Below, piece by piece: positions 4,730 to 28,796 of a DNA stretch of 32,555 bases (its first letter is position 1; each line of letters opens with the position of its first letter). Location: positions 1 to 32,555 of the forward strand of contig CALHCH010000087.1 of the NCBI GenBank assembly GCA_937930555.1, given 5' to 3'. The position numbers and the translations under genes are program-made. The notes below the pieces were generated by a model. It was not told the DNA's origin. It searched no databases and saw only the letters and a list, made by a program, of their open reading frames with translations. The stretch comes from Candidatus Absconditabacterales bacterium (GTDB taxonomy: Bacteria > Patescibacteriota > Gracilibacteria > Absconditabacterales > Absconditicoccaceae).

Positions 4730-5301
4730 CTTGTCCGACAAGAAAGCACATGATCATCTACGACACCTACTGCCTGGAGGTAGGCATATACAATCGTAGA
4801 TCACACAAAGCTCATCCCTCTACGCTTGAGATCATGGGAGATCTGATCGGACAGCTCACTAGTAGCTGGACACTCATCCACTGTCTTGTGATAGCTGATC
4901 ACGGGAGTATGATCTACTCGTCCTCGCAAATAATCCGCAAACGAGCCAAACTCCTCCTGTATCGCCACAAATACTTTTGCGTTTTTTCTCACAGAATATA
5001 TCTTGAGCTTGTTGCGGACGATACGTTCATCGTCTCTGAGAGATTCTAGATACATATCAGGTAACTCAGCTCATAGTAGTGGGTCAAAATCCTTGAATGC
5101 TTGACGATATCACTCACGCTTGCGTAGGATAGTGATCCGACTCAGTCCTGCCTGGGCTCACTCCAGCACCAAGAATTCAAACAATATACGATCATCGTAT
5201 ACCGGCACTCCTCGCTCCGTATCGTGATATGCCTCATACGTAGTATCTCATACGCATCGTGAGCATCTATTTTTTTGGTTGTTCTGAGTGTTCTGAGCCA
5301 T
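4717..5301 (-). CDS. tag: DNA-3-methyladenine glycosylase I
   Basis: 194 residues (family about 185-200), ATG at 5301, TAG at 4717. Tag removes 3-methyladenine from alkylated DNA, starting base excision repair. Visible hallmarks: N-terminal Cys pair (RCSRC, possible zinc ligand) followed by YHDTEWGVP at 25-33, EGAQAGLSWITIL at 47-59, DYLWGWVDHTP at 123-133, PATSELSDQISHDLKRRG, and VGVVDDH near the C-terminus. The four Trp residues in these motifs that are conserved or aromatic in the family are written CGA (5212-5214, 4918-4920, 4924-4926) or CGG (5137-5139), a strong sign of Arg-to-Trp codon reassignment. The start overlaps the upstream membrane gene by 35 nt, so the two are probably translationally linked. 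Confidence 0.9.
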
Positions 5302-5770
5302 CAAGCAACAATGATAAAAGCTGGCTACTCTCATCCAGCATCACTCACTCATCTCCAGTCTCGAGATTGTATGGGTAGTAGTATGTCTGTCTCAGTAGAT
5401 CTACAACAGATGTCTGAAGTCCAGTGTGAGCATATGTAAGAGACTGGAGTGTGGTGCTAGATATATCCATACCATATATTGTATATACCACATCCCTGAG
5501 TATCTGCTGATACTCACGATATCGAGACTGGGTGTCGGTCTGTCATATGGTCTGCTGGAGCTGAGATATCCTCTCTCTATATATGTCCAGGCTAATGGGA
5601 GCTTCGTGCGCACCTCCCTCATTGATAAAGGAGGGGTTGGGGGTGGATTTGCGACTCATCAGCCACCATATACCAGCCATACTCAACCCTAACCACAAAA
5701 ATGTCCATCGTCATCGTATGGTTCAGGTTGGTGTGAGTATTTCTGGATACAAGAATAATTCTCAAGTCAT
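5267..5770 (-). CDS. Small membrane protein of the Bat operon, DUF4381-like
   Basis: 167 residues, ATG at 5770, TAG at 5267. A short N-terminal part (FLYPEILTPTG) leads into one Trp-rich membrane segment (about 18-40; read with CGA=Trp it is WGWWTFLWLGLSMAGIWWLM), then a cytoplasmic helical part with SQLQQTIGQTDTQS and YREYQQILRDVVYTIYG. Between DUF58 and Bat VWA genes this place is usually held by a DUF4381 protein, and the N-terminal Pro/Trp/TM pattern fits; assignment is mainly from context. A GC-rich palindromic repeat (5613-5656) is read in frame just after the membrane segment. Confidence 0.65.
5613..5656. repeat. In-frame palindromic repeat in DUF4381-like gene
   Basis: CCTCCCTC...GAGGGGTTGGGGG with an ATTGATAAAG centre, a variant of the GC-rich repeat family in this locus. 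It encodes a Pro/Asn-rich peptide (STPNPSFINEGG). Confidence 0.6.
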
Positions 5771-16386: not shown

Positions 16387-17094
16387 TTAATTTGATGTGC
16401 CAATAATTCCATTCTTTTTCATCTCCTCAATTCTTTGAGTAGTTGTCTGTGCTTTAGAAAATAATTCATCTCTATCCTTACTTCTGTTTTCAGCGAGCAA
16501 TCTTGCTTCAACTTTTTTATACTTTTCTTCCACTATTCAGTTCACTAAATCACATAGAGCTATCATCCTTTTGAAATCCTCAACTCATCTTCATCAAACA
16601 GATTTTGTTCAGCAACAGAACAATCAAGTAATCTCTTTGGCGCTCTCCTCTATTTCTTCTGGAACAAACACAATCATACTTTGTGTAAGCTCTTCTCAAT
16701 TCTTTCATGCATGGGCAACAAATTCATTTCTCAAATGGATAACATGTGCATGAAAATCTTTAGGTCATTTTTCGAGATGATTCAAATCACTAGTATCAAG
16801 CTTAATTCATCTTCATCATTTTGCGGATGCAAATAATTTTCAGTACAATATAATTGAATGCTCCCATAAGATATCAATAAACTCTCAATCTGGATTCTTT
16901 AATAACTCAGTAGCTATCTCCTTAATCCTAGTAATATCACTTTGCATAGAATAATATCCTCTGCACTGCTTTGATATTGGACAATCAACTACCAATCGAG
17001 GAGCCTCAATTCAATCATTAAAATCGATATAAGGGATAACGATATCTCATGCTCACATCTGAGTTCTTGCAGAGCCTCATACATTTATTTTCAT
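16387..17094 (-). CDS. HEPN-like protein of unknown function
   Basis: 235 residues, ATG at 17094, TAA at 16387. A mostly helical protein with HVIHLRNEFVAHAGKN at 117-132; R122-x5-H128 has the Rx4-6H form of HEPN domains, many of which are RNases in toxin or defence systems. The C-terminal 60 residues form a charged helix (EEKYKKVEARLLAENRSKD). HEPN assignment rests on this one motif, so it is a suggestion only. It follows the AAA ATPase by 19 bp and probably works with it. Confidence 0.65.
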
Positions 17095-17113: not shown

Positions 17114-18436
17114 TTAAATTAGACTAAGCATAATATCAATTGAGTCTTTTAACATTTGTTTAGTATAAGATCTTCCCAACTCATCAGGATGATGTATGTT
17201 ATTTCTAATGAATACTGGAAGCTTCTCAGTAACTGTGTCTCATATATTTTTTCATCAAAATGCTTTTGTAACTGTAAACGTAATATCTGGTATATACGAT
17301 AATGAAGAAAACAGATTATTTCCTAATCAACTAGGTCAATCTTCATTATGCTTTATTAGTAATGCTGTAAATAGTTCAATATGCAGAAGCTCATCAAATA
17401 TATCGTAAGCGATATAATTTATTAAATTATGGCTAGGGCTGTTTATACTATTGGGATAGTATCAAAGCACTTCTCATTTTTCATCTCAAGAACAAAATCT
17501 ATCTACCTTAACGCAAACACTTTTTCAATCTTCTAATCATTGTAATATATACGGAGAGTGAGTAGCAATAAAAAACTGAACATCCAATCAATCAAATATA
17601 TCCAATAAAAATTGGGTATACCTAGTCTGCCAAATGGGATGTAAACTCGTTTCCGGCTCATCAATAAACACCATGGCTCAATCCATTTTTCCTAAATTGA
17701 TCAACAGTTCTCAGACTCTAAACAGAATCTGTTTCTCTCAAGTACTAAAATCACTTATTGAAACTTCGTTTCAATTTATGTCTTTGAAAAGAATTTTATG
17801 CTTTCCTCATTCTGGTCTTATTGCTTCAAAGGTCTTTGAAGATTCGTACATTTTTTTAAATGCATCTTTGAATCTATCAAACTTAATTTCTCATGTAAAT
17901 TGATTTCCAGGTTTTCATGGATTCTCTTGCATCCATTTAGACCTCATCTTGGCGTCTTGTGTATCTAAATCAATTAGTAGTTGAGGAATAACCTTTGATA
18001 AATCTTTAGACATTTTTTTTGGAATCTCGTCTCCATCTGTAACTGATGCTGTAACAGAAGATATATCTGGAACGTCAAATGTAACGTCCAAACTAGAATA
18101 CACTGCTTTTACAATTTCTTGTTTCCCATGAGATGAACTAGTTGAATGATTCTTCTTTGATGATATCAATGTCATTAAGTTATTTGTTCATGTCGGTCAT
18201 TCTGAATCTAATAACTTAACATCAACTTCAATTTTAAATTTATCTACTTTTTTATATGCAGTTTGAGACGTCAATCAAAAAAATATAGACTCTAACAAAT
18301 GAGTTTTTCAGGCTCAATTATTTCAAACGACAAAAAATATCTTTGGAACATCCTCAATAGTTGGATCAAAAAAAGTTACCGTACTATCATTGGGAAAAAC
18401 TGGATGTTCTTTGAAAATTATTTTTGAAACTTTCAT
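17114..18436 (-). CDS. AAA/ABC-type ATPase (AAA_21, OLD-like) of defence operon
   Basis: 440 residues, ATG at 18436, TAA at 17114. Walker A GNNGAGKT at 38-45 with all three glycines TGA (18323-18325, 18314-18316, 18308-18310). Signature FSTGEKQILF, Walker B MVFIDEPETSLHP, and IATHSPYIL with the switch His. The C-terminus (RNNIHHPDELG...YTKQMLKDSIDIML) is shared by AAA_21-type ATPases beside restriction and abortive-infection genes. ATP use by SMC/RecF-like head domains is expected; a partner effector is likely one of the adjacent HEPN-like proteins (inference). 22 bp after the 51-residue gene. Confidence 0.88.
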
Positions 18437-18458: not shown

Positions 18459-18614
18459 CTATTCTGACTCCTTAACTACATCAGTCTCTCTAATCTGATA
18501 ATCGACTAATGCACTAGCCATTTTCCTCATTTGAATAAGTTGAAGCTCAAGTTCCTCATCAGGCATTTCATCATATTTAGGTCATAAGATTTCTCTCATT
18601 TCAGCAACGTCCAT
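18459..18614 (-). CDS. Small helical protein, 51 residues
   Basis: ATG at 18614, TAG at 18459. Starts MDVAEMREILGPKYDEMPDEE and continues in an amphipathic helix (LELQLIQMRKMASALVDYQI). The ATG comes one base after the TAA of the fusion gene (TAA T ATG), so the two are translationally coupled. Role unknown; a small subunit or inhibitor of the fusion protein is possible. Confidence 0.65.
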
Positions 18615-18615
18615 A

Positions 18616-21219
18616 TTATATATGATCTAAAAATTCATCTATACTATTTGGCAAAGTATTCTGACACTCTTTGGCTTCGTCTTTCGTAAGTTTCTCTGTG
18701 TGAGCACATCTAATACGAAACTTCTTATTTATTTCACCTATAGTTTTGAGATAATCTACCAGAAACCCAAATCAATTTCAAAATTTATTTCTCAGGAATT
18801 TATGGAATTCTTGTAATAATCTACTTTGCTGCAAAGTAGATCAACTGTCTTTCTTTATAAGATCAAGAATAAAAATAATATTTCCAAGAGTGTACTTTAC
18901 CTCTTCAAGAGGTTTCTTGTGAAATTTCTTTACCATTCTTGAGAACATATATGATTTAACCTCTTCTCAATTTAGCTTAGATTCATCTTCCCAAGAAACT
19001 AATTCATTAACATCATCAAAATTTTCATTCATATAAGCACTAAACGCAACAAAAATTTTGTTAAGAAGTTCATTCTCTAAACTTCTACAATATTCAAGAA
19101 CAACTGGAGAAAAATCAATTCACTCAAATTTTGAAAGCTCTTCAAACAATAATGATCATACTGGTAGATATTCTTTTGAAAGATCATGGAGATCATCTCG
19201 ATTTAGAATTCTGCTCTTAAGCAAAGTCTCGTGTTGCAAATATCAGTCTTCATTACTCTTTTTTAGGTCATCTCAAATTTTTTGAACTTGCTCCTGTATT
19301 AAAATCAATTTTCATTCTAGATCAAATTCCTTGTTCTTAATACTGTCTATCTTATCAAGAGATTCAGATATCATACTCTTTATTTCCTGAACATTAGATT
19401 GGACCGACTTTGTTATTGCAATATTTTCTATCACATTAACATCAACTCTAGCTGCAATTTTTAACAACATGTCCAACTTAGAATCATATTTTTTTTCAAG
19501 GTAGTTAATTATGTATCTCCCCGATTCTGCGTTTAAATACTCAACTTGATCAGTATTTCTTGTGCCAAAACCTATACTAGCTCAGCTCTGTTCAGACTTA
19601 GCTTCTCATGTTTTATGATATCAATTTATTTCGTATTTATTATTAGAGTTTCATGATAGCCATTCTTTAGGATCAGGGAATCCTTTCATTTCTACTAATC
19701 ATTTTTTCTCAATATCAAAATGATAGAAAGAATTCTGATCGAGTATAAATGCATCCTTTATATCAGTTCAATTTAGTAAATCTTCTACCTGATGAATCAA
19801 CATCCTCTTATCTTTGATATTTCTCTTAACTTCTATAATTGCCTCAATCTTTCATTGGTATTCCAAGGCCAAGTCAGCAATCTTAGTATCTGATAATTTA
19901 TACTCAACATTAACAGTTCGTCATTTATTTTCGGCTGACTGTTTTAGTTGGTCAATCATAACTTGCTCAGAATCTGATACGATTTCATTGTATGAAACTT
20001 CCAATTTAGGTATCTTGAAGCTTTTAATATCACTTATTGATATTCTCTTTACAATACTTCAGGCACTATATTTTCTCAGATAAGAATTAAAGATCTTATC
20101 CCACAAATTACTATCATAAAACAATTTTAAATATTTTGTCTTATCACGAATTACTATGATATTTGGATGAGCCAGGTATTTAGGATTTTCTTCTTTTACG
20201 ATTACAGTTCTAAAGTCAGGTCAAAAGTTTGAAATTAAAATATCTCATTCTTCAATAACTCTCATTCACTTAAAAGAGTTGGCATACTTTTGTCATTGTA
20301 CTGGTACAACAATCTCTCATTGAATATTCTTTGGCATAATCATAGCATACTCTCATCAGTCATACATGATCTTATCAGCACTTGGTGGTCTTCAAGTAAA
20401 TATCTCAGCGACTTCTCATATCGTAGTAACATCATAATCTACCAGCTCATTATCTATTATTGAGTTATCAAAAAGATGATACGATACGGATCGTGTTTCA
20501 GTAAGATTTTTAATATCAATTTGATTGTACATCTGCCTACTTGATAATTTTTCTGCAATATTTCATCAGTCATATTTATCCATATACACTAATCAGGTGG
20601 ATGCGTTATTTGTGATAATAATCAATGAGGTGTTAATTCATGTATGTGGATAAAATGCTCACTTTCTTCATCATTCAAATTCAATGATCGCATTTAGATT
20701 ATAGTTTTTGGTGAGATATACCCTGAAATCTTGTAAAGTCCTATTGAATAAAAAGCCATTGGGAACCACCAGTATCAGCTTTCAGTCTTGATTGAGGAGA
20801 TTCAATGATTTGTAGATATATGCTTCTTCTGATTTCCTCAACTTAAATCATTCTTTAGTTTCCTTTACCGCATCTCATTTGAATCTCATACCAAATGGTA
20901 TTGTTCAAACTATCAAGTCATAGGTTTTGGATATATCTGCGTTTAGAAAATCTTCATTAATAATTTTTGCGTCAGATACTTTCGAAGCAATTTTAAGATT
21001 TTCACCATATACTTCATACCCCTCCACTTCTCAATAATTTATGTGGCGTGCAAGATTTCCTATTCACATCATAGGAATAAGAATTTTCTTTACATTATCT
21101 CATCTTCAAAGATTGGACAACTCTTGACATAAAAAATCAGGAATATAGAAAAAACCTCTACCGAGATCAGATTCTTTGACAAGCTTACTCTCTAGCAATA
21201 ATTCTTTAAAATCTTGCAT
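18616..21219 (-). CDS. Methylase-like / TRD / PD-(D/E)XK-like / HEPN-like fusion protein
   Basis: 867 residues, ATG at 21219, TAA at 18616. Domains by eye: N6-methylase-like fold 1-215 (motif I region PMMGIGNLAR at 49-58; motif IV region DLIVGTIPFG at 101-110 where active enzymes have NPPF/NPPY; VVPNGFLF); HsdS-type target recognition domain about 255-415 (VTTIGEVAEIFTGRPPSADK, then GMRVIEEGDILIS, SISDIKSFKIPKLE); PD-(D/E)XK-like segment 430-500 (D449, E463-V-K465 in ADLALEYQGKIEAIIEVKR); coiled-coil stretch 575-660; helical C-terminus with FRIRCAH (R835-x4-H840, HEPN-like). Catalytic Asn of motif IV is Thr, so methylation may be lost. 19 bp after hsdM and one base before the 51-residue gene. 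TRD and methylase assignments are good; nuclease and HEPN parts are tentative. Confidence 0.8.
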
Positions 21220-21238: not shown

Positions 21239-22768
21239 TTATCCCAACATCTCCTCCAGCTCATCCATCCCTTGCAATATACTATTCTCTATCTCTCTGA
21301 TTTGCTTGATAAGTATCTCTGGCTTTTCATATTCTATTGTTTCATATACTATCTCTTTGTATTTGTTGAGACTAAGATCATATCATTCTTCTTGTATCTC
21401 TTCTTTCGTCACCCAAAACCAGTTATCTCATTCTTTAGGTTCAGTATCGTACTTTCTCCCCAATACAAGATCTTTGTATAAGCTCTGTATCTCAGGCACA
21501 TTACTTCACTCTATTTCATTTCTTTTATCATCTAGAGAGTATCCATCATTTTGCAAATCATAGTACCAAACTTTCTTGGTTTCATCCCCTTTGGTAAAGA
21601 TCAAGATAGCTGTACTTACTCAAGCATAGGGCTTGAAGACTCCACTAGGTAAACTAATGACAGCTTTGAGTTCGTTATCTTCTATAATTTTTTCTCTTAT
21701 GTGCTTATGTGCCTTACTACTCCCAAACAATACTCCATCAGGAACAATCACTCCTGCCTTTCCTCAGATAGTAAGTTTCTCCAAGATAAGTTCCAAAAAT
21801 AAAAGCTCCGTCTTCTTGGTACTAAGAGAAAAGTTTTCATTCATATCTCCAGCGTCAATACTTCACTTGAATGGTGGATTTGCTAGCACGATATCATACT
21901 CAGGAGTAAGTTTGTACTGCTTACCTAGCGTATCTCCATATACAATATTTGGAGAATCTACTCAGTGCAAGATACTGTTCATAAGAGCGATCCTTACCAT
22001 AGTGCTATCAATATCATATCCTATGAGTCACTCATTCTTTACTCTCTTCCGGTCTTCCTTACTCAGCATATCTCCTGTATATTGCTCTTCTCATCACTCA
22101 TCTTTTATAATCCCGTCCTTAGAGGTATTCTCTTTAATGATGTGCTTATATGCATTGATCAGAAATCAAGCAGTACCACATGCTGGATCACACACTTTAT
22201 CATGCTTGGTAGGATTAACGATATCTACTATCATCTGTATGATATGTCTTGGTGTACGAAACTGACCATTCTTTCCAGCGCTAGATATCTCAGAGAGTAA
22301 GTACTCGTATATATCTCCAGCAGTATCATCGTTCTGAGCCGTGATTTGTAGATCATTGATTGTAGTTGTTGCTGTGACGAGCATACTTGCCTTGGGTATC
22401 AAGAATGAAGCATCCTTGAGGCTCCCAGCAAAGCCATCTCCTGTATCAAGTTCTTTGATAAATGGAAACACAACATCTCTCACATACGGGAACATCTGAT
22501 CTGCACTCATCTGAGTCCAATGTGATCGTCTCAGCTTCTGCTTATCATAGCTCTTATCTCCATCGACATAGGTTCCATCGAACAATGAGGTATAGTCTTG
22601 TCCGAGTCTCTTTGCCTTAGCTACTCTCTGACTATCCAATATATCAATACGATACATAAAAATCAGATACGAGATCTGTTCTACTGCTGTGAGTGGATTG
22701 GATAATCCTCCAGACCAGAATATTTCTCGGAGTTTATCAATTTGTGATTTGAGAGTTGAATTTAGCAT
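21239..22768 (-). CDS. hsdM: Type I restriction-modification DNA methyltransferase subunit
   Basis: 509 residues, ATG at 22768, TAA at 21239. HsdM_N domain ([20 protein letters not shown] at 13-32; KLRWSHW at 78-84), AdoMet motif I DPACGTAGFL at 194-203 whose second Gly is TGA (22166-22168), [15 protein letters not shown], and catalytic NPPF at 297-300. Transfers a methyl group to adenine N6 in the HsdS-defined site. CGA codons at 22727-22729 and 22526-22528 fall on the Trp of LWEIFW and LRWS. Catalytic motifs are intact, so the M2S complex should be active. Confidence 0.95.
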
Positions 22769-22770
22769 AA

Positions 22771-23565
22771 TTACTGAGGTCTAATAAAAACTTTTACTGG
22801 ATATGTGTTTGATTGCTCAAGGTCGTTTTCCAATCATACTGGATTTCAAACTAATCATAGTGAATCATACACAAAACAAACTAAAGTTTCACAGTCAGGA
22901 TGTCATTCATATCTGGCTATGTCTACTATTAACTGTTCTCATATTTGCTTATCTTTAAGTGACTCTCTGGTCATTTTAACTTCAACTGCAATCTTTTCTT
23001 TCTTGAGAATAAAATCTATCCTAGAAGATCATCAAGCATAACTTGGACTATATTCTTCAGGACGTACATCATCAAAATGTATACTTAACAATCAGTTAAG
23101 TAAGTCTTGTACGTCATACTCATCCTATATATCTATCGTCCCACGAGATCAGTGTCTCTTCCTCAGTTTTCTTGCAACAGTATGAAATGATTGAAATAAG
23201 TTTTCTAATATTCAAATTGAATCTACTTCTTGTATATCATCATCAACTGGAACTTCATCGATATACGATAACAGTAATGGCTTTGCATAATTTAATCCCT
23301 TTTCGCATCACTCTTCTTTTGTATCATAAATTGTTTTTCATCATCAGATAAAAGAACTATCTTGATATGGAATGAAATCTATTTCATTCTGACCAAAATA
23401 AATATCCTTAAAATCTCTTAAATGTCATGAGTTATCTCAAAAAACTCTTTCGAGATATCTAATAGTTTTTTTATGTCGAGTCTGAAATTGAGAAGATTCT
23501 CTTGATTGTCATATAAGAGAGTCTACTTCATCTAAAAGAGATTGTAGAGTTTCACGATCTTGCAT
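22771..23565 (-). pseudogene. PD-(D/E)XK nuclease-like protein, interrupted by in-frame TAG
   Basis: Reading frame of 264 codons (ATG 23565, TAA 22771) broken by TAG at codon 147 (23125-23127). Both sides read as one known layout: an N-terminal part (RYLERVFGDNSGHLRDF) and, right after the TAG, DEYDVQDLLNGLLSIHFDD, EYSPSYAGGSSRIDFIL and KKEKIAVEVKMTRES, with nuclease core D and EVK, then DCETLVCFVYDS. The family normally has Glu before DEYDVQ, so one GAG-to-TAG change explains the stop. No start codon lies after it. It sits between hsdS and hsdM with 6 and 2 bp gaps. Sequencing error, a recent mutation, or readthrough cannot be told apart here. Confidence 0.8.
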
Positions 23566-23571
23566 ATATAT

Positions 23572-24672
23572 TTAAATAATGTTAAAAGATTCTTGCATTT
23601 GTTGAGCAAGGAATAGCTCTAATTGCTTCAAACTATAGCTCTGGTTTTTTAATATTTCTATATTTCAAATAACAATCTTTGAATACTTTTGTTGAAGAGA
23701 CTTGCCTGGAATTGGAACCAAAATTCATTTCAAAACTTCGCCCTTAACTCATTGAATTGTTGCTCATCTCTTTTGAGAGTCAAAAAAGGATATATATGAC
23801 CTAACAACATCTGATAAATATATGACATCAAAGTCTTGACTGATATCCGTCATTGATACTATATCTTGGTTTGTTGAAATATCACATTGATTTATAGATA
23901 CCTTTCCTACTCAAACTCTAGTTCATATTATCAGAGATCATTTTTTAATGATTTTAGTTGCGGATTTTTTAATCGCTTCTTCTGTTAAATATTCAACAGC
24001 ATCAGTTCAATCTATAAAGTAATTTCACAATGACACTGTGGTTACCCAAGGATTATCTCATTCAAAATATTCTGGATGCTTTCTTGAAGGAGTTCATCAT
24101 GATTTAAATGATCATATCTTTCATAATTCTATAGTATCGAAATTATTAGTATTACTTTGAATATCCCCAAACATCTCCACAAAAATACTCTTCCCCAACT
24201 CCTCTGTCTTTGCTATCGCTTCTTTCTTTTGATCTATAAGAGATTGGATATGGTCCAGTTTTTTAGCTATGGCTTTTTGGGTTGGGAGGTCTGGATACGA
24301 AACAGTAATTGTTTTTAGGTGCTTAAAAAATCTTTGGTATCATTCTTTTCAAGGTATATGAACGCTACTTAAATAATGATAAGCATACTTAGGGTCCAAT
24401 TCATTAGAACATTGTAAGACTTTAACTCAATCAGCTCATATAGTAAAAGGCGTATCTACAAACTTAAATATCTTAGTGTGATCTCAAAAAATTATACAAG
24501 GCGAATTTTCGAAATTAACTAGTTCGCTACTATCGGTGTATCATCAAATATAATTCTTGCCTTGATCAATAATTGAAAACTCTCAAGAAGAGAGATAATC
24601 TTCTTTCTTTATCTTATTAAACTTTCTAGTTATGTCAGTAAAGACATCCAAAAATCATTTTGTTTTTATCAT
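23572..24672 (-). CDS. hsdS: Type I restriction-modification specificity subunit
   Basis: 366 residues, ATG at 24672, TAA at 23572. Two target recognition domains: TRD1 about 1-145 (SSGEFSIIDQGKNYIGGYTD), a conserved helical spacer (LPTQKAIAKKLDHIQSLIDQ), and TRD2 about 190-345 (LGKIGSFKSGGTPSRKHPEYF, NPWVTTVSLGN, LIIGTRVGVGKVS), then a short terminal helix. Each TRD reads one half of a split DNA site. Somewhat short: the second spacer helix is reduced. The start overlaps the upstream membrane-protein gene by 7 nt. Confidence 0.93.
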
Positions 24673-25796
24673 ACATTATTTGATCATAAAGGTAGTTTAT
24701 TTATTAGTGTTTCAAGTAGTGATTTATATCAAGGATCTTTCGTTTTGTTTTTTGAATACATATGCGAATCATTTTCGGAAATAAATGCATTAACTAGTTT
24801 TTCTGTAGTTATAAATTCTATCTTTTTCTTTTCATCAGAGTCATTAACTGTATCTATAATCAAAGGATAGACATCAAGCATACTTTGTTTTTGTGAATAA
24901 CTAACAAATAGGTTGCTAGATATCTTATACTGACTAATAAACAGAGATAACAAATAAAATAGAACTGAAAAAAATAGTATCTGCTTAATCAAATTATATA
25001 TATTTGAAAAATTAAGTACTATCTCCTGTTGCTCTAAAATTGATTTTATCTCAGTATCAGAAAATTCAATTGGATAAGTAATAGTAGTTCACGTTGAATA
25101 TGCTTGATTTAAAATTATCTCTCTTTCAATAGAAATATCTCTAATTCTAAAAAGATTATAAGAATACACTAGAATTACAATTCAAAGAACTATAGCTAGT
25201 CATAAGGCAACTGCTCTTTCAATAAAATATCGTTTTATCATCTTCTCTGTATTCATCACGAAGAATCATTTTCTTTCTCATTCTTTATCAATTGTACTTC
25301 ATTTCTCAGACAACTTCTTAGCCAATCATTCAACCTTTTCTATTAGTCAATCTACATGACTAACTTTTTCATCTAAATTATTATTTTGGATAATATATTC
25401 TAGATATTCATTCTTTAAATTATTTAAATTTGTAAGTGCGTTATTTCAGTCAGTTCATTTTTCAATACTATCTCTATACTTTTTTAAATTTGATTTAACT
25501 ATATTTAATTGTCTGGTATAGCTTTGAGTATTTCATAGATATTTTCATAAATCTTGAATCTTTAAATACTGATTATTAAATTCTTCAACAAGAGATTTAA
25601 TGATATTATCATATTTATGTGTATCACTTTTCTCTGACTTATCTCTAAACTCCTCTATAATTTCTTTAAGGTAAGAGAAAGTATCTCAAAAATCTGATGT
25701 TAAATCAGATGTCAGTTTCCCTGTTTGATCTGTTATGGATAAATTTTCAATATCTATCGCATTATATCAATCTCGGTTAATTTCAATATCAGTCAT
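24666..25796 (-). CDS. Two-TM coiled-coil membrane protein within the hsd operon
   Basis: 376 residues, ATG at 25796, TAA at 24666. Residues 35-175 are long, charged helices likely forming a coiled coil (YLKEIIEEFRDKSEKSD, LNIVKSNLKKYRDSIEK). TM1 about 192-213 (FIERAVALGLAIVLGIVILV) and TM2 about 268-288 (LIKQILFFSVLFYLLSLFI) enclose a loop of about 55 residues. A soluble C-terminus follows. No family recognised. It lies between hsdR and hsdS with a 5-bp gap and a 7-nt overlap, so it belongs to the restriction operon. A membrane effector or membrane tether for the complex is an inference. Confidence 0.8.
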
Positions 25797-25801
25797 ATAG
25801 T

Positions 25802-28531
25802 TTAATTAGACAAACTAAACATCCCCACAAACTCCATCATCTTCTGTACCTCATCACTTTTAAATAATCTATCTACTGCTCCAGCTCACATCACTCATTC
25901 GATTGATGGACTATATAAGTCCTCATAAGTCACTGGCTTCCTTTGCAGGATTTTTGATTTTATAATTTTCATAAATCTTATCTGCTGGGAGTTGTAGTTT
26001 TGCTCTTGGATATGTTTTTCAAATAAGTCATTCACTTCATGCTCCCACTCTGGTAGACTTCATTTCCCTAGAGCTACTTTGATCAATTGCTCAAAACTTA
26101 CTGTTAGTCTCCCCACAGCTACTCTTAGATTACTGAGGTCTATATGGTATTCGTTTTGACTAAGGACTTGTTCCAATGCGTGTATATCCTCTTGAGACAC
26201 CAGTTCATCATTGAGGATTTTTTGTATGGTTGGGTGATCCTTAAGGACATCCTCCATCTGTTGCTCAAAGATTGCTCGATACTTATCTGACTCCATCTTC
26301 TTGTTATCAGCATAGTGAATCCATCTTCTTTCGATTACCTCATCCTTGAGATCTGTGATCAGCAATTCTTTGACCTGTGGTTTCCTATACTTCATCAGTC
26401 CAGTAAACTCTTCTATAAGACCATCTACTTGCTCTGTATCTATTTGATTCCAAAAACTCGGAGTGAGTACTTCTTTGATTACATCCTGTTTTTCTTCTAC
26501 TAGTGATATATTGCTAGGCAAAGCATTGATATCTGAAGCCATACTTCACATAAGTTTTTCTTGTTTCTCAGACTCTTGTGTTAAGATTGCTTGCTTAAGT
26601 CTAGATCCTTTAGTCATAAACTTTATTTCATCTATAGTATTTTCAGCATAGTATCTCATAAGTGGTGCAACTTTCTGCAGTTGCTCATTAGGATTAACTG
26701 CAATGTTATCCCATATCTTTCAACTACCTATATCTAGCACGAGTTCTCTATGATCCATCACATCAGAATTTTCTTTATCTAGAGACAATACCATCTTTGT
26801 AATCTTTGTAGTTAATTCTTCTACTCTATCTTTATCTTCTCTATTCTTCCACAGTTTCAATTCATCAACTAGAGCCTCGAAGTATTGTTGTTGTATAGGT
26901 TTTATCTTCCCACTTGGCTTGCTGAACTTGCGATTATCCTCAAAATTTAAACCATAATCAAAGATAAGAAAATCTTGTTTATCTTCTCATGGTCAAAACA
27001 AATCAGGACATAACCTAGTTCATCTACCTATCATCTGTCGAAACTTAGGCTCTGACATTACTTTCTTAGCAAAGACTAGGTTTACCAACTCAGGCACATC
27101 TATACCTGTATCCAACATAGCCACTGATATCGCTATACGATATTTCTTTTCTGTTTTAAATTTCTTAAATTGCTTGATCAGATCTCCAGACTTCTCTACA
27201 TTTGAAGTAATAACCACAGAAAAATTATCTAAGTTTGGATACAATTCCTCAAAAATTCTTTGGAGAGTGTCAGCATGTTTCTGAGTTTGTGCAAAGATTA
27301 TTGTCTTACCAGGCAAACCATCCTCTGCTGGAATTGCATGTTGCATGAACTCTTTAATCATTGCTCTATTGGTGTCTATATTTGATATAGTCTTTTCTAG
27401 TTCAGTTCATTCAAAGTTTATTTCATCTACAGTCTTTCATTCTCTTGTGAGTTGATCCAATATTTCATCAGGCAACTGTCTTGACTTAATACCCTGTATT
27501 TGAAATGCTGTTCTTGCTACCATTACATTATATGGAACAAGAAAATTTTCTTTAATAGCATCATCTAAGCCATAAAAATATGTAGGGTCTTCCGTTCTGA
27601 GTCAAAATACTTTATATGTATTTCTATCTATATGCTGTATTGGAGTAGCAGTAAGTCAGACTTTAACTGCATCAAAATGCTCCAAGATTGCATTCCAATC
27701 TCAATACAATGATCTATGCACCTCATCTATCACTATCAAATCAAAGTATCCACTACTATACTCGTCTAGCTTGTTAATCATTGTTTGATATGTCGCTGCG
27801 TACAGTCTTGCATTCTTATCTGTTTCTCAGGTTACGATTTCTGTTTTTGGTTCATTTGGTATATGAGTAAATCAATCGTCATGAGCTTGCTGTCTAAGAG
27901 CTTCTCTATCACATAAGAAAAGTACTTTTTGAGCATTAGATGACTTCAGAAACACATCGATCAATCACATAGCAGTTCTGGTCTTCCCTGTACCAGTCGC
28001 CATCACTAGCAAAAAACTTCTTTGTCATGCGTCTACTCATTCAGCTACTTTCTTGATAGCTTCCATTTGATACCATCTTCCAGAGATGTCTGCATTTATT
28101 GCAATCTCTCCAGCAGGTGTTTTGTTCTCATTCAAGAATTTTCTTCTTTGTAGATCAGTCAATGAATAAAATCATCTAAGCGATCTTGGAACTTCTCACA
28201 ATTCTGAATTATAGAATTCAATTTCTTTTCCGTTAGACAAAAAAATGAAAGGTCTCTTTCATTGTTTTGCTTCAAGTAATTCTGCGTATTCTAGTGCTTG
28301 ATGTTTACCAGCTCTTACATCACGAGAAAATTTCTTTGCTTCTATAATTGCTAGTACAGTTCCATCATTATTGTATAGTGTGTAATCTACATACAAAGTT
28401 GAATCTCATTCTCTTTCAAGTGGAAATTCTGACATGACTTGTAAAGGATTTTTAATATCCCGTCATGCTAGCTTCAATTTCTTATCTATGAGTAATTCAC
28501 GAGTTTCATCCTCGTTGAGATGTTCTACCAT
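25802..28531 (-). CDS. hsdR: Type I restriction enzyme, motor/endonuclease subunit
   Basis: 909 residues, ATG at 28531, TAA at 25802. N-terminal nuclease with D49, E64-A-K66 and Q78 ([18 protein letters not shown]), helicase motif I MATGTGKT at 177-184, DEVH at 269-272, TATP at 294-297, and motif VI QMIGRGTRL with Gly from TGA (27020-27022). HsdR translocates DNA and cuts unmethylated DNA away from the site. CGG at 28460-28462 gives LAGWDI and CGA at 27038-27040 gives KFWQMIGRG, both conserved Trp in this family. First gene of the ten-gene minus-strand operon. All catalytic motifs are present. Confidence 0.95.
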
Positions 28532-28661
28532 CAATGAATAGTTTTTTCGTAAAATAGACTATTTTTTGTTTATACAAAAAGATTTCTCAAAATACAGCCT
28601 AAGTCCATAATAGACATAATTCTAAACATTTCTCAGATTTTCTTGAGGCAACAAAATCATC

Positions 28662-28729
28662 AAAAAAACTCCCTTTCAGGAGCTTCTCATATTCTATTAT
28701 TCGCAAAATCTTATACTCTTAATTTGGGC
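28662..28729. repeat. Right copy of 68-bp direct repeat, overlapping tRNA-Lys 3' end
   Basis: Starts AAAAAAACTCCCTTTCAGG and ends in GGGC. Covers the tRNA-Lys 3' end, then a spacer and a CTCC/GGAG hairpin followed by a T run on the minus strand, which is probably the tRNA terminator (28662-28685). Five mismatches to the left copy. Confidence 0.75.
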
Positions 28730-28796
28730 CCTCCGGGACTCGAACCCGGGACCATCGGCTTAAAAGGCCGTTGCTCTACCACTGAGCTAAAGGCCC
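28725..28796 (-). tRNA. tRNA-Lys (anticodon TTT)
   Basis: 72 nt. Acceptor stem GGGCCTT/AGGGCCC (one G-T pair), D arm GCTCAGTGGTAGAGC, anticodon arm CGGCCTTTTAAGCCG with TTT, T arm CCGGGTTCGAGTCCCGG, discriminator A. CCA is not encoded. Reads Lys AAA/AAG. Confidence 0.97.

What the first reader, a model, noticed from the sequence alone, without database searches (positions are those of the whole stretch)
18616..21219. 867-residue fusion: degenerate methylase, TRD, PD-(D/E)XK-like and HEPN-like parts in one chain
The N-terminal methylase fold has TIPF where N6-methylases have NPPF/NPPY, so the catalytic Asn is missing. The fold and a full HsdS-type TRD are kept and are followed by a D-x13-E-V-K nuclease-like motif, a coiled coil and an R-x4-H helical end. 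A protein that reads a DNA site without methylating it, then signals to a nuclease or RNase part, would be a new kind of sensor-effector. It is coupled to a 51-residue protein by TAATATG.
Basis: partly seen in the sequence, partly recalled or inferred. Interest (0 to 1): 0.83.

Follow-up and report, generated by a model that had tools for sequence, protein, structure and literature searches.

The report
Dead methylase fused to nuclease-like domains
A tiny, poorly known bacterium that reads the stop codon TGA as glycine carries, inside a restriction-modification (anti-virus) operon, one large protein that joins a broken DNA methylase and a DNA-reading domain to what look like a DNA-cutting domain and an RNA-cutting domain; it probably recognises foreign DNA, or failure of the operon's main enzyme, and then shuts the cell down, but no activity has been tested.

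Summary
The gene lies on the minus strand (18616-21219) and is open for 867 codons only with TGA=Gly (code 25; 42 TGA codons). It sits in a tight Type I R-M operon (HsdR, HsdS, intact NPPF HsdM), directly after hsdM. Residues 20-213 match HsdM profiles, but motif I (DPACGTG) reads IPMMGIG and motif IV (NPPF) reads TIPF, so adenine methylation is very unlikely. Residues 260-405 are a full HsdS-type TRD. Residues 418-520 carry D449/E463-x-K465 in the register of HsdR-N and NOV_C PD-(D/E)XK domains, with moderate support. The C-terminus was settled by relatives: residues 677-865 belong to a domain, absent from Pfam, found at the end of archaeal TPR proteins and in plasmid proteins. R835, A839 and H840 are invariant in all seven; the six others have RNxxAH, the HEPN signature, while P0001 has RIRCAH. 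No other copy of the full architecture was found in over 700 related genomes, nor in plasmids or phages. Best reading: an accessory, DNA-targeted HEPN effector (PrrC-like in logic) of a Type I operon. A 2013 survey stated that HEPN domains in R-M systems are not fused to methylases. Activities are untested; structure predictions were uninformative.

The parts
18616..21219 (-). 867-codon gene P0001 (code 25, TGA=Gly): pseudo-N6-methylase, TRD, PD-(D/E)XK-like, coiled coil, HEPN-type domain
   Evidence: 42 TGA codons, no TAA/TAG; a single place in its own genome
20470..21162 (-). residues 20-250: degenerate gamma-type N6 methylase fold (pseudo-HsdM, without the HsdM N-terminal domain)
   Evidence: Eco57I 37.1 bits; hhalign 98.5% to a 38-HsdM profile over 20-213
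21058..21078 (-). residues 48-54 IPMMGIG in place of motif I DPACGTG
   Evidence: alignment
20893..20904 (-). residues 106-109 TIPF in place of the catalytic NPPF/Y
   Evidence: 171 of 178 HsdM-like ORFs have NPPF/Y/W
20005..20442 (-). residues 260-405: HsdS-type target recognition domain
   Evidence: Methylase_S 36.4 bits; PADLOC Specificity_I 2.8e-11
19645..19968 (-). residues 418-525: PD-(D/E)XK-like domain (HsdR-N / NOV_C type); D449 (19873-19875), E463-x-K465 (19825-19833)
   Evidence: a broader profile failed to separate it from shuffles
19240..19452 (-). residues 590-660: long helix, probable coiled coil
   Evidence: low-confidence helix 594-654; heptad pattern
18625..19191 (-). residues 677-865: HEPN-type helical domain
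18700..18717 (-). R835-I-R-C-A-H840, RX4H motif; R, A and H invariant in seven proteins
18459..18614 (-). 51-codon ORF starting 1 nt after the stop of P0001 (TAATATG)
   Evidence: no confident family
21239..22768 (-). HsdM, intact DPACGTA and NPPF
   Evidence: N6_Mtase 215 bits, HsdM_N
23572..24672 (-). HsdS with two TRDs
   Evidence: Methylase_S 76 bits; the two hits of PF01420 in the genome
25802..28534 (-). HsdR (EcoAI/EcoEI type)
   Evidence: ResIII, HSDR_N, EcoEI_R_C
17114..18436 (-). AAA_21 ATPase (PtuA/AriA-like), downstream in the operon
16387..17094 (-). 235-aa protein with an RNEFVAH motif, possible second HEPN-type protein
   Evidence: phrog_8440 1.4e-9

Best explanation
P0001 is an accessory effector of a Type I R-M operon. 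SHOWN (by sequence): a catalytically degenerate HsdM-like methylase fold and one HsdS-type TRD form a single-chain half of an M-S complex; behind them come a PD-(D/E)XK-like domain and a domain with an invariant RX4H. INFERRED: the pseudo-methylase/TRD head docks the protein on a half-site of DNA, or into the HsdM-HsdS assembly, without methylating it. The long coiled coil dimerises the chains and transmits the state. The HEPN-type end is a latent RNase, released when invading DNA is recognised or when the Type I complex is disabled, so that infected cells stop translating. The PD-(D/E)XK part nicks or cuts the bound DNA, or acts as a second sensor. The logic is that of PrrC in EcoprrI: a toxic RNase kept under a restriction complex as second-line defence, but with the DNA-reading module in the same chain.
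For: Operon: ten ORFs on one strand with gaps of 2-33 nt or short overlaps, hsdM 19 nt upstream. Dead methylase: motifs I and IV lost, while 171 of 178 HsdM-like ORFs keep NPPF/Y/W. TRD intact. HEPN-type end: R835/A839/H840 and E715 invariant in seven divergent proteins, six of them with canonical RNxxAH; 72.5 bits against a profile built without it. No TRD similar to that of P0001 elsewhere in its genome, and no PF01420 hits other than the window's HsdS, so no dedicated methylase protects its presumed site, which speaks for conditional action rather than free cutting. PrrC precedent, and the rule that R-M-linked HEPN domains fuse to nucleases, helicases and ATPases but not methylases (PMC3710099; PMC3874165). 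A sister code-25 operon with the same R/S/M core carries instead a small RNxxAH protein between hsdS and hsdM.
Against: I836 replaces the usual polar residue after the HEPN Arg, so the RNase may be weak or lost. No full-length homologue was found, so conservation of the whole architecture is untested. The HEPN fold itself was not confirmed: both predictions had low confidence and there was no PDB profile hit. PD-(D/E)XK support is moderate, and the 71-sequence profile did not beat shuffles. The methylase part is no closer to the neighbouring HsdM than to others, and its TRD does not resemble the window HsdS TRDs, so docking in the Type I complex is unproven. The genome is 85.5% complete.
Confidence: 0.45

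Rival explanations
1. A Type IIG/Type I-like restriction endonuclease with permuted order (M-S-R instead of R-M-S): the pseudo-methylase/TRD only positions the PD-(D/E)XK domain, which cuts DNA; the C-terminal domain is structural or for dimerisation.
For: Intact D449/E463/K465 in the register of HsdR-N and NOV_C; M, S and R elements in one chain, as in Type IIG (PMC3874165).
Against: No cognate methylase or similar TRD is detectable in the genome; R835/H840 are conserved across unrelated fusions, more than a mere spacer would need; Type IIG R domains are N-terminal and their methylase is active.
Confidence: 0.2
2. Regulatory pseudo-subunit: P0001 binds HsdM/HsdS or DNA and tunes Type I assembly or specificity; both nuclease-like parts serve only as binding modules.
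For: Directly downstream of hsdM in the operon; pseudo-enzymes are common in such systems, e.g. inactive nuclease domains in BREX and CoCoNuTs (PMC12839542, PMC11090510); I836 deviates from the HEPN consensus.
Against: Both presumed catalytic sets are intact, whereas pseudo-domains usually lose them, as the methylase part here did; the sister operon lacks the gene, so the core does not need it.
Confidence: 0.2
3. The methylase is not dead but altered in chemistry or substrate.
For: The fold and the GxG of motif I remain; some methylases tolerate motif changes (general knowledge).
Against: The two key motifs and the QFxTPR element are all lost together.
Confidence: 0.05
4. A decaying or chimeric gene without function.
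For: No full-length relative found; the neighbouring DpnII/MboI-type gene carries an in-frame amber codon.
Against: 867 codons open with 75% of Gly codons as TGA, like the operon neighbours; all domain boundaries and the RX4H and D/ExK residues are intact.
Confidence: 0.1

Closest known systems
PrrC anticodon nuclease in the EcoprrI Type IC operon (PMC3710099, PMC3874165)
   Same: HEPN-type RX4-6H domain encoded inside a Type I hsd operon; toxic RNase as second-line defence is the proposed logic.
   Different: PrrC has an N-terminal ABC ATPase and no methylase or TRD; P0001 has a pseudo-methylase/TRD head and a PD-(D/E)XK part, and the AAA ATPase of this operon is a separate gene.
HsdM and HsdS of Type I R-M systems
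   Same: Methylase fold (hhalign 98.5%) and TRD (Methylase_S over cut-off).
   Different: Motifs I and IV lost, no HsdM_N domain, one TRD fused behind the methylase, two nuclease-like domains added.
Type IIG (R-M-S single-chain) enzymes
   Same: R, M and S elements in one chain.
   Different: Order M-S-R, methylase degenerate, extra coiled coil and HEPN-type end.
HEPN fused to REase or helicase in R-M systems (DUF4145, Swt1/Abi2, EC042_2821 and others; PMC3710099)
   Same: HEPN-type domain linked to a PD-(D/E)XK-type nuclease in an R-M operon.
   Different: The passages read there list no methylase/TRD head; [quoted passage not shown]
C-terminal RNxxAH domain of TPR proteins (archaeal L198, L208, L209; PADLOC PDLC02907)
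   Same: Clear homology of residues 677-865, with R, A and H invariant.
   Different: There it follows TPR repeats, not a DNA-reading head.
CoCoNuT systems (PMC11090510)
   Same: Coiled coils, PD-(D/E)XK and HEPN domains combined in one defence system.
   Different: McrBC-type GTPase systems; no methylase/TRD fusion of this kind in the passages read.

Membership tests
Type I / gamma N6-adenine methylase (HsdM) | catalytic NPP[FYW] motif IV | tested here: not met
   TIPF at 106-109; 171 of 178 HsdM-like ORFs have NPPF/Y/W
Type I / gamma N6-adenine methylase (HsdM) | SAM-binding motif I DPAxGxG | tested here: not met
   IPMMGIG at 48-54
Type I / gamma N6-adenine methylase (HsdM) | overall fold by profile | tested here: met
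   37 bits against cut-off 25; hhalign 98.5%
HsdS-type TRD | Methylase_S profile over the gathering score | tested here: met
   36.4 against 22 bits
PD-(D/E)XK (HsdR-N / NOV_C type) | D...E-x-K in register | tested here: met
   D449, E463, K465 aligned with HsdR catalytic residues
PD-(D/E)XK (HsdR-N / NOV_C type) | significant profile similarity | tested here: inconclusive
   17.4 bits against top shuffle 14.3 with 15 HsdR; 8.1 against 10.7 with 71 HsdR; NOV_C E=0.03
HEPN superfamily | RX4-6H motif conserved in the family | tested here: met
   R835 and H840 invariant in seven sequences
HEPN superfamily | polar residue (N/D/H) after R | tested here: not met
   I836 in P0001; Asn in all six relatives. 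Described as typical, not absolute, in PMC3710099
HEPN superfamily | four-helix fold with the motif at the end of helix 3 | tested here: inconclusive
   all-helical prediction with a helix ending at H840, but pLDDT about 50-60; no PDB match
HEPN superfamily | metal-independent RNase activity | not testable with these tools
   needs a bench assay
PrrC | ABC ATPase and HEPN in one chain | tested here: not met
   no ATPase family in P0001
PrrC | encoded in a Type I hsd operon | tested here: met
Type IIG R-M enzyme | N-terminal R domain and active methylase | tested here: not met
   nuclease-like part is C-terminal to the TRD; methylase motifs lost

The most novel reading that the evidence does not exclude
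A sequence-gated RNase: a catalytically dead methylase-TRD head probes DNA for a specific unmodified (or modified) site, and its engagement switches on a HEPN RNase, and perhaps a DNase, in the same polypeptide, turning a modification enzyme into a DNA-site-triggered abortive-infection switch.
Probability: 0.27. Interest if true: 0.85.

Novelty: new variant of a known kind. Interest (0 to 1): 0.62.

Why it matters
R-M-associated HEPN RNases are thought to be second-line killers controlled by the restriction complex, and the 2013 survey of the superfamily noted that they do not fuse to methylases. This protein is such a fusion, with the methylase inactivated, as one would expect if modification activity is what is incompatible with a toxic partner. 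If the head does read DNA and gate the RNase, it would be a simple, testable and possibly reprogrammable link from a DNA sequence to RNA cleavage. It also shows an R-M operon with accessory effectors in a code-25 (TGA=Gly) ultra-small bacterium, where ordinary gene calling and tblastn lose much of the signal.

Tried and rejected
Full-length relatives: none in 380 phylum genomes, plasmids (14) or phages; C-terminal half: none in 353 class genomes and only weak partial hits in phylum genomes. The IMG/VR and GTDB peptide-pattern scans (11, 16, 27) can only find relatives of roughly 75% identity or more (my estimate), so they count little. Borderline C-terminal hits: L024 (a NusG-like protein) and L025 were inspected, and L022 and L027 only considered; all were set aside as chance. 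L023 turned out to be an HsdR N-terminus. Structure: 405-867 with HsdR rows over the PD part only, pLDDT 55, Foldseek best E 0.15, HsdR 3h1t only at rank 23 with E 1.5; 670-867 as single sequence, pLDDT 46. MAFFT misplaced D449 in A3/A4, so the HsdR rows of A5 leave that residue out. TRD of P0001 against the window HsdS TRDs: no similarity. Integration repeat of the tRNA-Lys 3' end: none. The 71-sequence HsdR-N profile did not separate the PD domain from shuffles. HsdM flanks of 80 GTDB loci: no P0001-like gene; searching the whole genomes behind those loci gave the archaeal C-terminal homologue.

Full report
WHAT IS THERE. The window belongs to a 1.2 Mb, 85.5% complete genome (G000, contig C87). 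The gene is on the minus strand and is open only when TGA is read as glycine, NCBI code 25; table 11 breaks it. The same holds for its neighbours: 42 of 56 glycine codons in the gene are TGA, 24 of 31 in the AAA gene, 23 of 29 in hsdS, 11 of 39 in hsdM. The operon is poorer in G+C (0.25-0.38) than most of the flanking genes (about 0.37-0.49). Order of transcription: hsdR 25802-28534, a coiled-coil protein 24666-25796, hsdS 23572-24672, a DpnII/MboI-type nuclease gene 22771-23565 interrupted by an amber codon, hsdM 21239-22768, P0001 18616-21219, a 51-codon ORF 18459-18614, an AAA_21 ATPase 17114-18436, and a 235-codon gene 16387-17094.

THE HEAD. Residues 20-213 align with a profile of 38 HsdM proteins (hhalign 98.5%; hmmsearch 58.7 bits over 80-209). 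Motif I DPACGTG is IPMMGIG, motif IV NPPF is TIPF, and QFRTPR is FFYIPD. Of 178 HsdM-like ORFs surveyed, 171 have NPPF, NPPY or NPPW. The HsdM N-terminal domain is absent. The methylase part is no closer to the window's own HsdM (42 bits) than to other HsdMs (up to 55 bits), so it is not a recent duplicate. Residues 260-405 score 36.4 bits with Methylase_S against a cut-off of 22. The TRD is unlike both TRDs of the window HsdS. No other place in the genome resembles it, and the only PF01420 hits in the genome are those of HsdS. That family search did not report the TRD of P0001 itself, so such TGA-rich genes can be missed and the negative is not absolute.

THE MIDDLE. Residues 418-520 carry D449, E463-x-K465 and Q474 and end in GFPDPKEWL, as an HsdR N-terminus ends in GFPTPMDLL. 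Support: a single-sequence hit to an HsdR N-terminus in another genome of the class (E=0.005), Pfam NOV_C (which to my knowledge is a PD-(D/E)XK-type family) in the same register (E=0.03), and 17.4 bits against a profile of 15 HsdR N-termini where the best of 2000 shuffles reached 14.3. A broader profile of 71 did not beat shuffles (8.1 against 10.7), so this remains probable rather than proved. A long helix follows (594-654).

THE TAIL. This is the part that changed most. Searching whole genomes behind HsdM loci of GTDB gave an archaeal TPR protein whose end matches residues 685-864 (blastp 1.5e-16). That sequence led to plasmid proteins of Bradyrhizobium, Streptomyces and Priestia (the Priestia hit was weak, E=0.5, and rests on the conserved motifs), and the alignment led to two more archaeal TPR proteins. 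In all seven, R835, A839 and H840 are invariant; S704, E715 and L778-G779 are too. The six others read RN-x-x-A-H, which is what Anantharaman and colleagues give as the HEPN signature, with a polar residue after the Arg (PMC3710099). P0001 reads RIRCAH. A profile built without P0001 gives it 72.5 bits; the best of 2000 shuffles gets 7.8. Pfam has no model for the domain; one member touches Hypoth_Ymh, a HEPN family in that survey, only at E=0.2. One archaeal relative is a full-length match to PADLOC 'TPR'. I therefore call the tail HEPN-type by motif conservation, and leave the fold unproved: AlphaFold gave low confidence twice, Foldseek no significant match, and a profile search of PDB sequences nothing.

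HOW RARE. The full protein has no relative of the same architecture in 380 genomes of the phylum or in plasmids and phages, and its C-terminal half has none in 353 genomes of the class. The closest comparable operon is in another genome whose genes need TGA=Gly to stay open (L116, G696): HsdR 54%, HsdM 62% and HsdS 39% identical, a coiled-coil protein in the corresponding place, but no P0001; between hsdS and hsdM it has a 184-codon frame with MRNLLAH. So the R/S/M core is shared and P0001 is cargo.

HOW IT MAY WORK. A dead methylase with a TRD is a reading head. Behind it are a probable DNase-like fold and a probable RNase. The economical model is that of PrrC in EcoprrI: a toxic RNase held by, or near, the restriction machinery and released on infection (PMC3710099; PMC3874165). 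What is added here is a DNA-reading module in the same chain. The 2013 survey says that R-M-linked HEPN domains fuse to nucleases, helicases and ATPases, not to methylases; here the methylase is inactivated, which fits that rule in spirit. The same survey's table does mention occasional fusions of one MNT-linked HEPN family to nucleic acid methylase domains, so the rule is about R-M-linked families. Whether the trigger is the DNA site or failure of the Type I complex cannot be told from sequence. The absence of a detectable matching methylase argues against a freely acting restriction enzyme. I836 and the lack of orthologues are the main cautions.

Noticed in passing
22771-23565 (-): A DpnII/MboI-type PD-(D/E)XK gene (PF18742 E=6e-36; N-terminal part like PADLOC PDC-S35) is split by a single in-frame TAG, in the slot between hsdS and hsdM.
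   Followed up: partly
16387-17094 and 17114-18436 (-): AAA_21 ATPase (PtuA/AriA-like) followed by a 235-aa protein with an RNEFVAH motif (phrog_8440): possibly an ATPase-HEPN pair of its own.
   Followed up: partly
L116:9153-9704 (+): In a sister TGA=Gly genome the same Type I core carries a 184-aa frame with MRNLLAH between hsdS and hsdM, so effectors seem to be exchanged in this slot.
   Followed up: partly
24666-25796 (-) and L116:6602-7969: Coiled-coil protein with apparent C-terminal membrane segments between hsdR and hsdS in both operons, without detectable sequence similarity between the two at E 0.01.
   Followed up: no
28725-28796 (-): tRNA-Lys (TTT) gene lies directly upstream of hsdR; no repeat of its 3' end was found at the other end of the island.
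   Followed up: yes
L209:195-3272 and 4839-5639: Archaeal 1026-aa TPR protein with the same RNxxAH tail (full-length match to PADLOC PDLC02907 TPR), near a gene that looks CARF-like (NVSGGTK).
   Followed up: no
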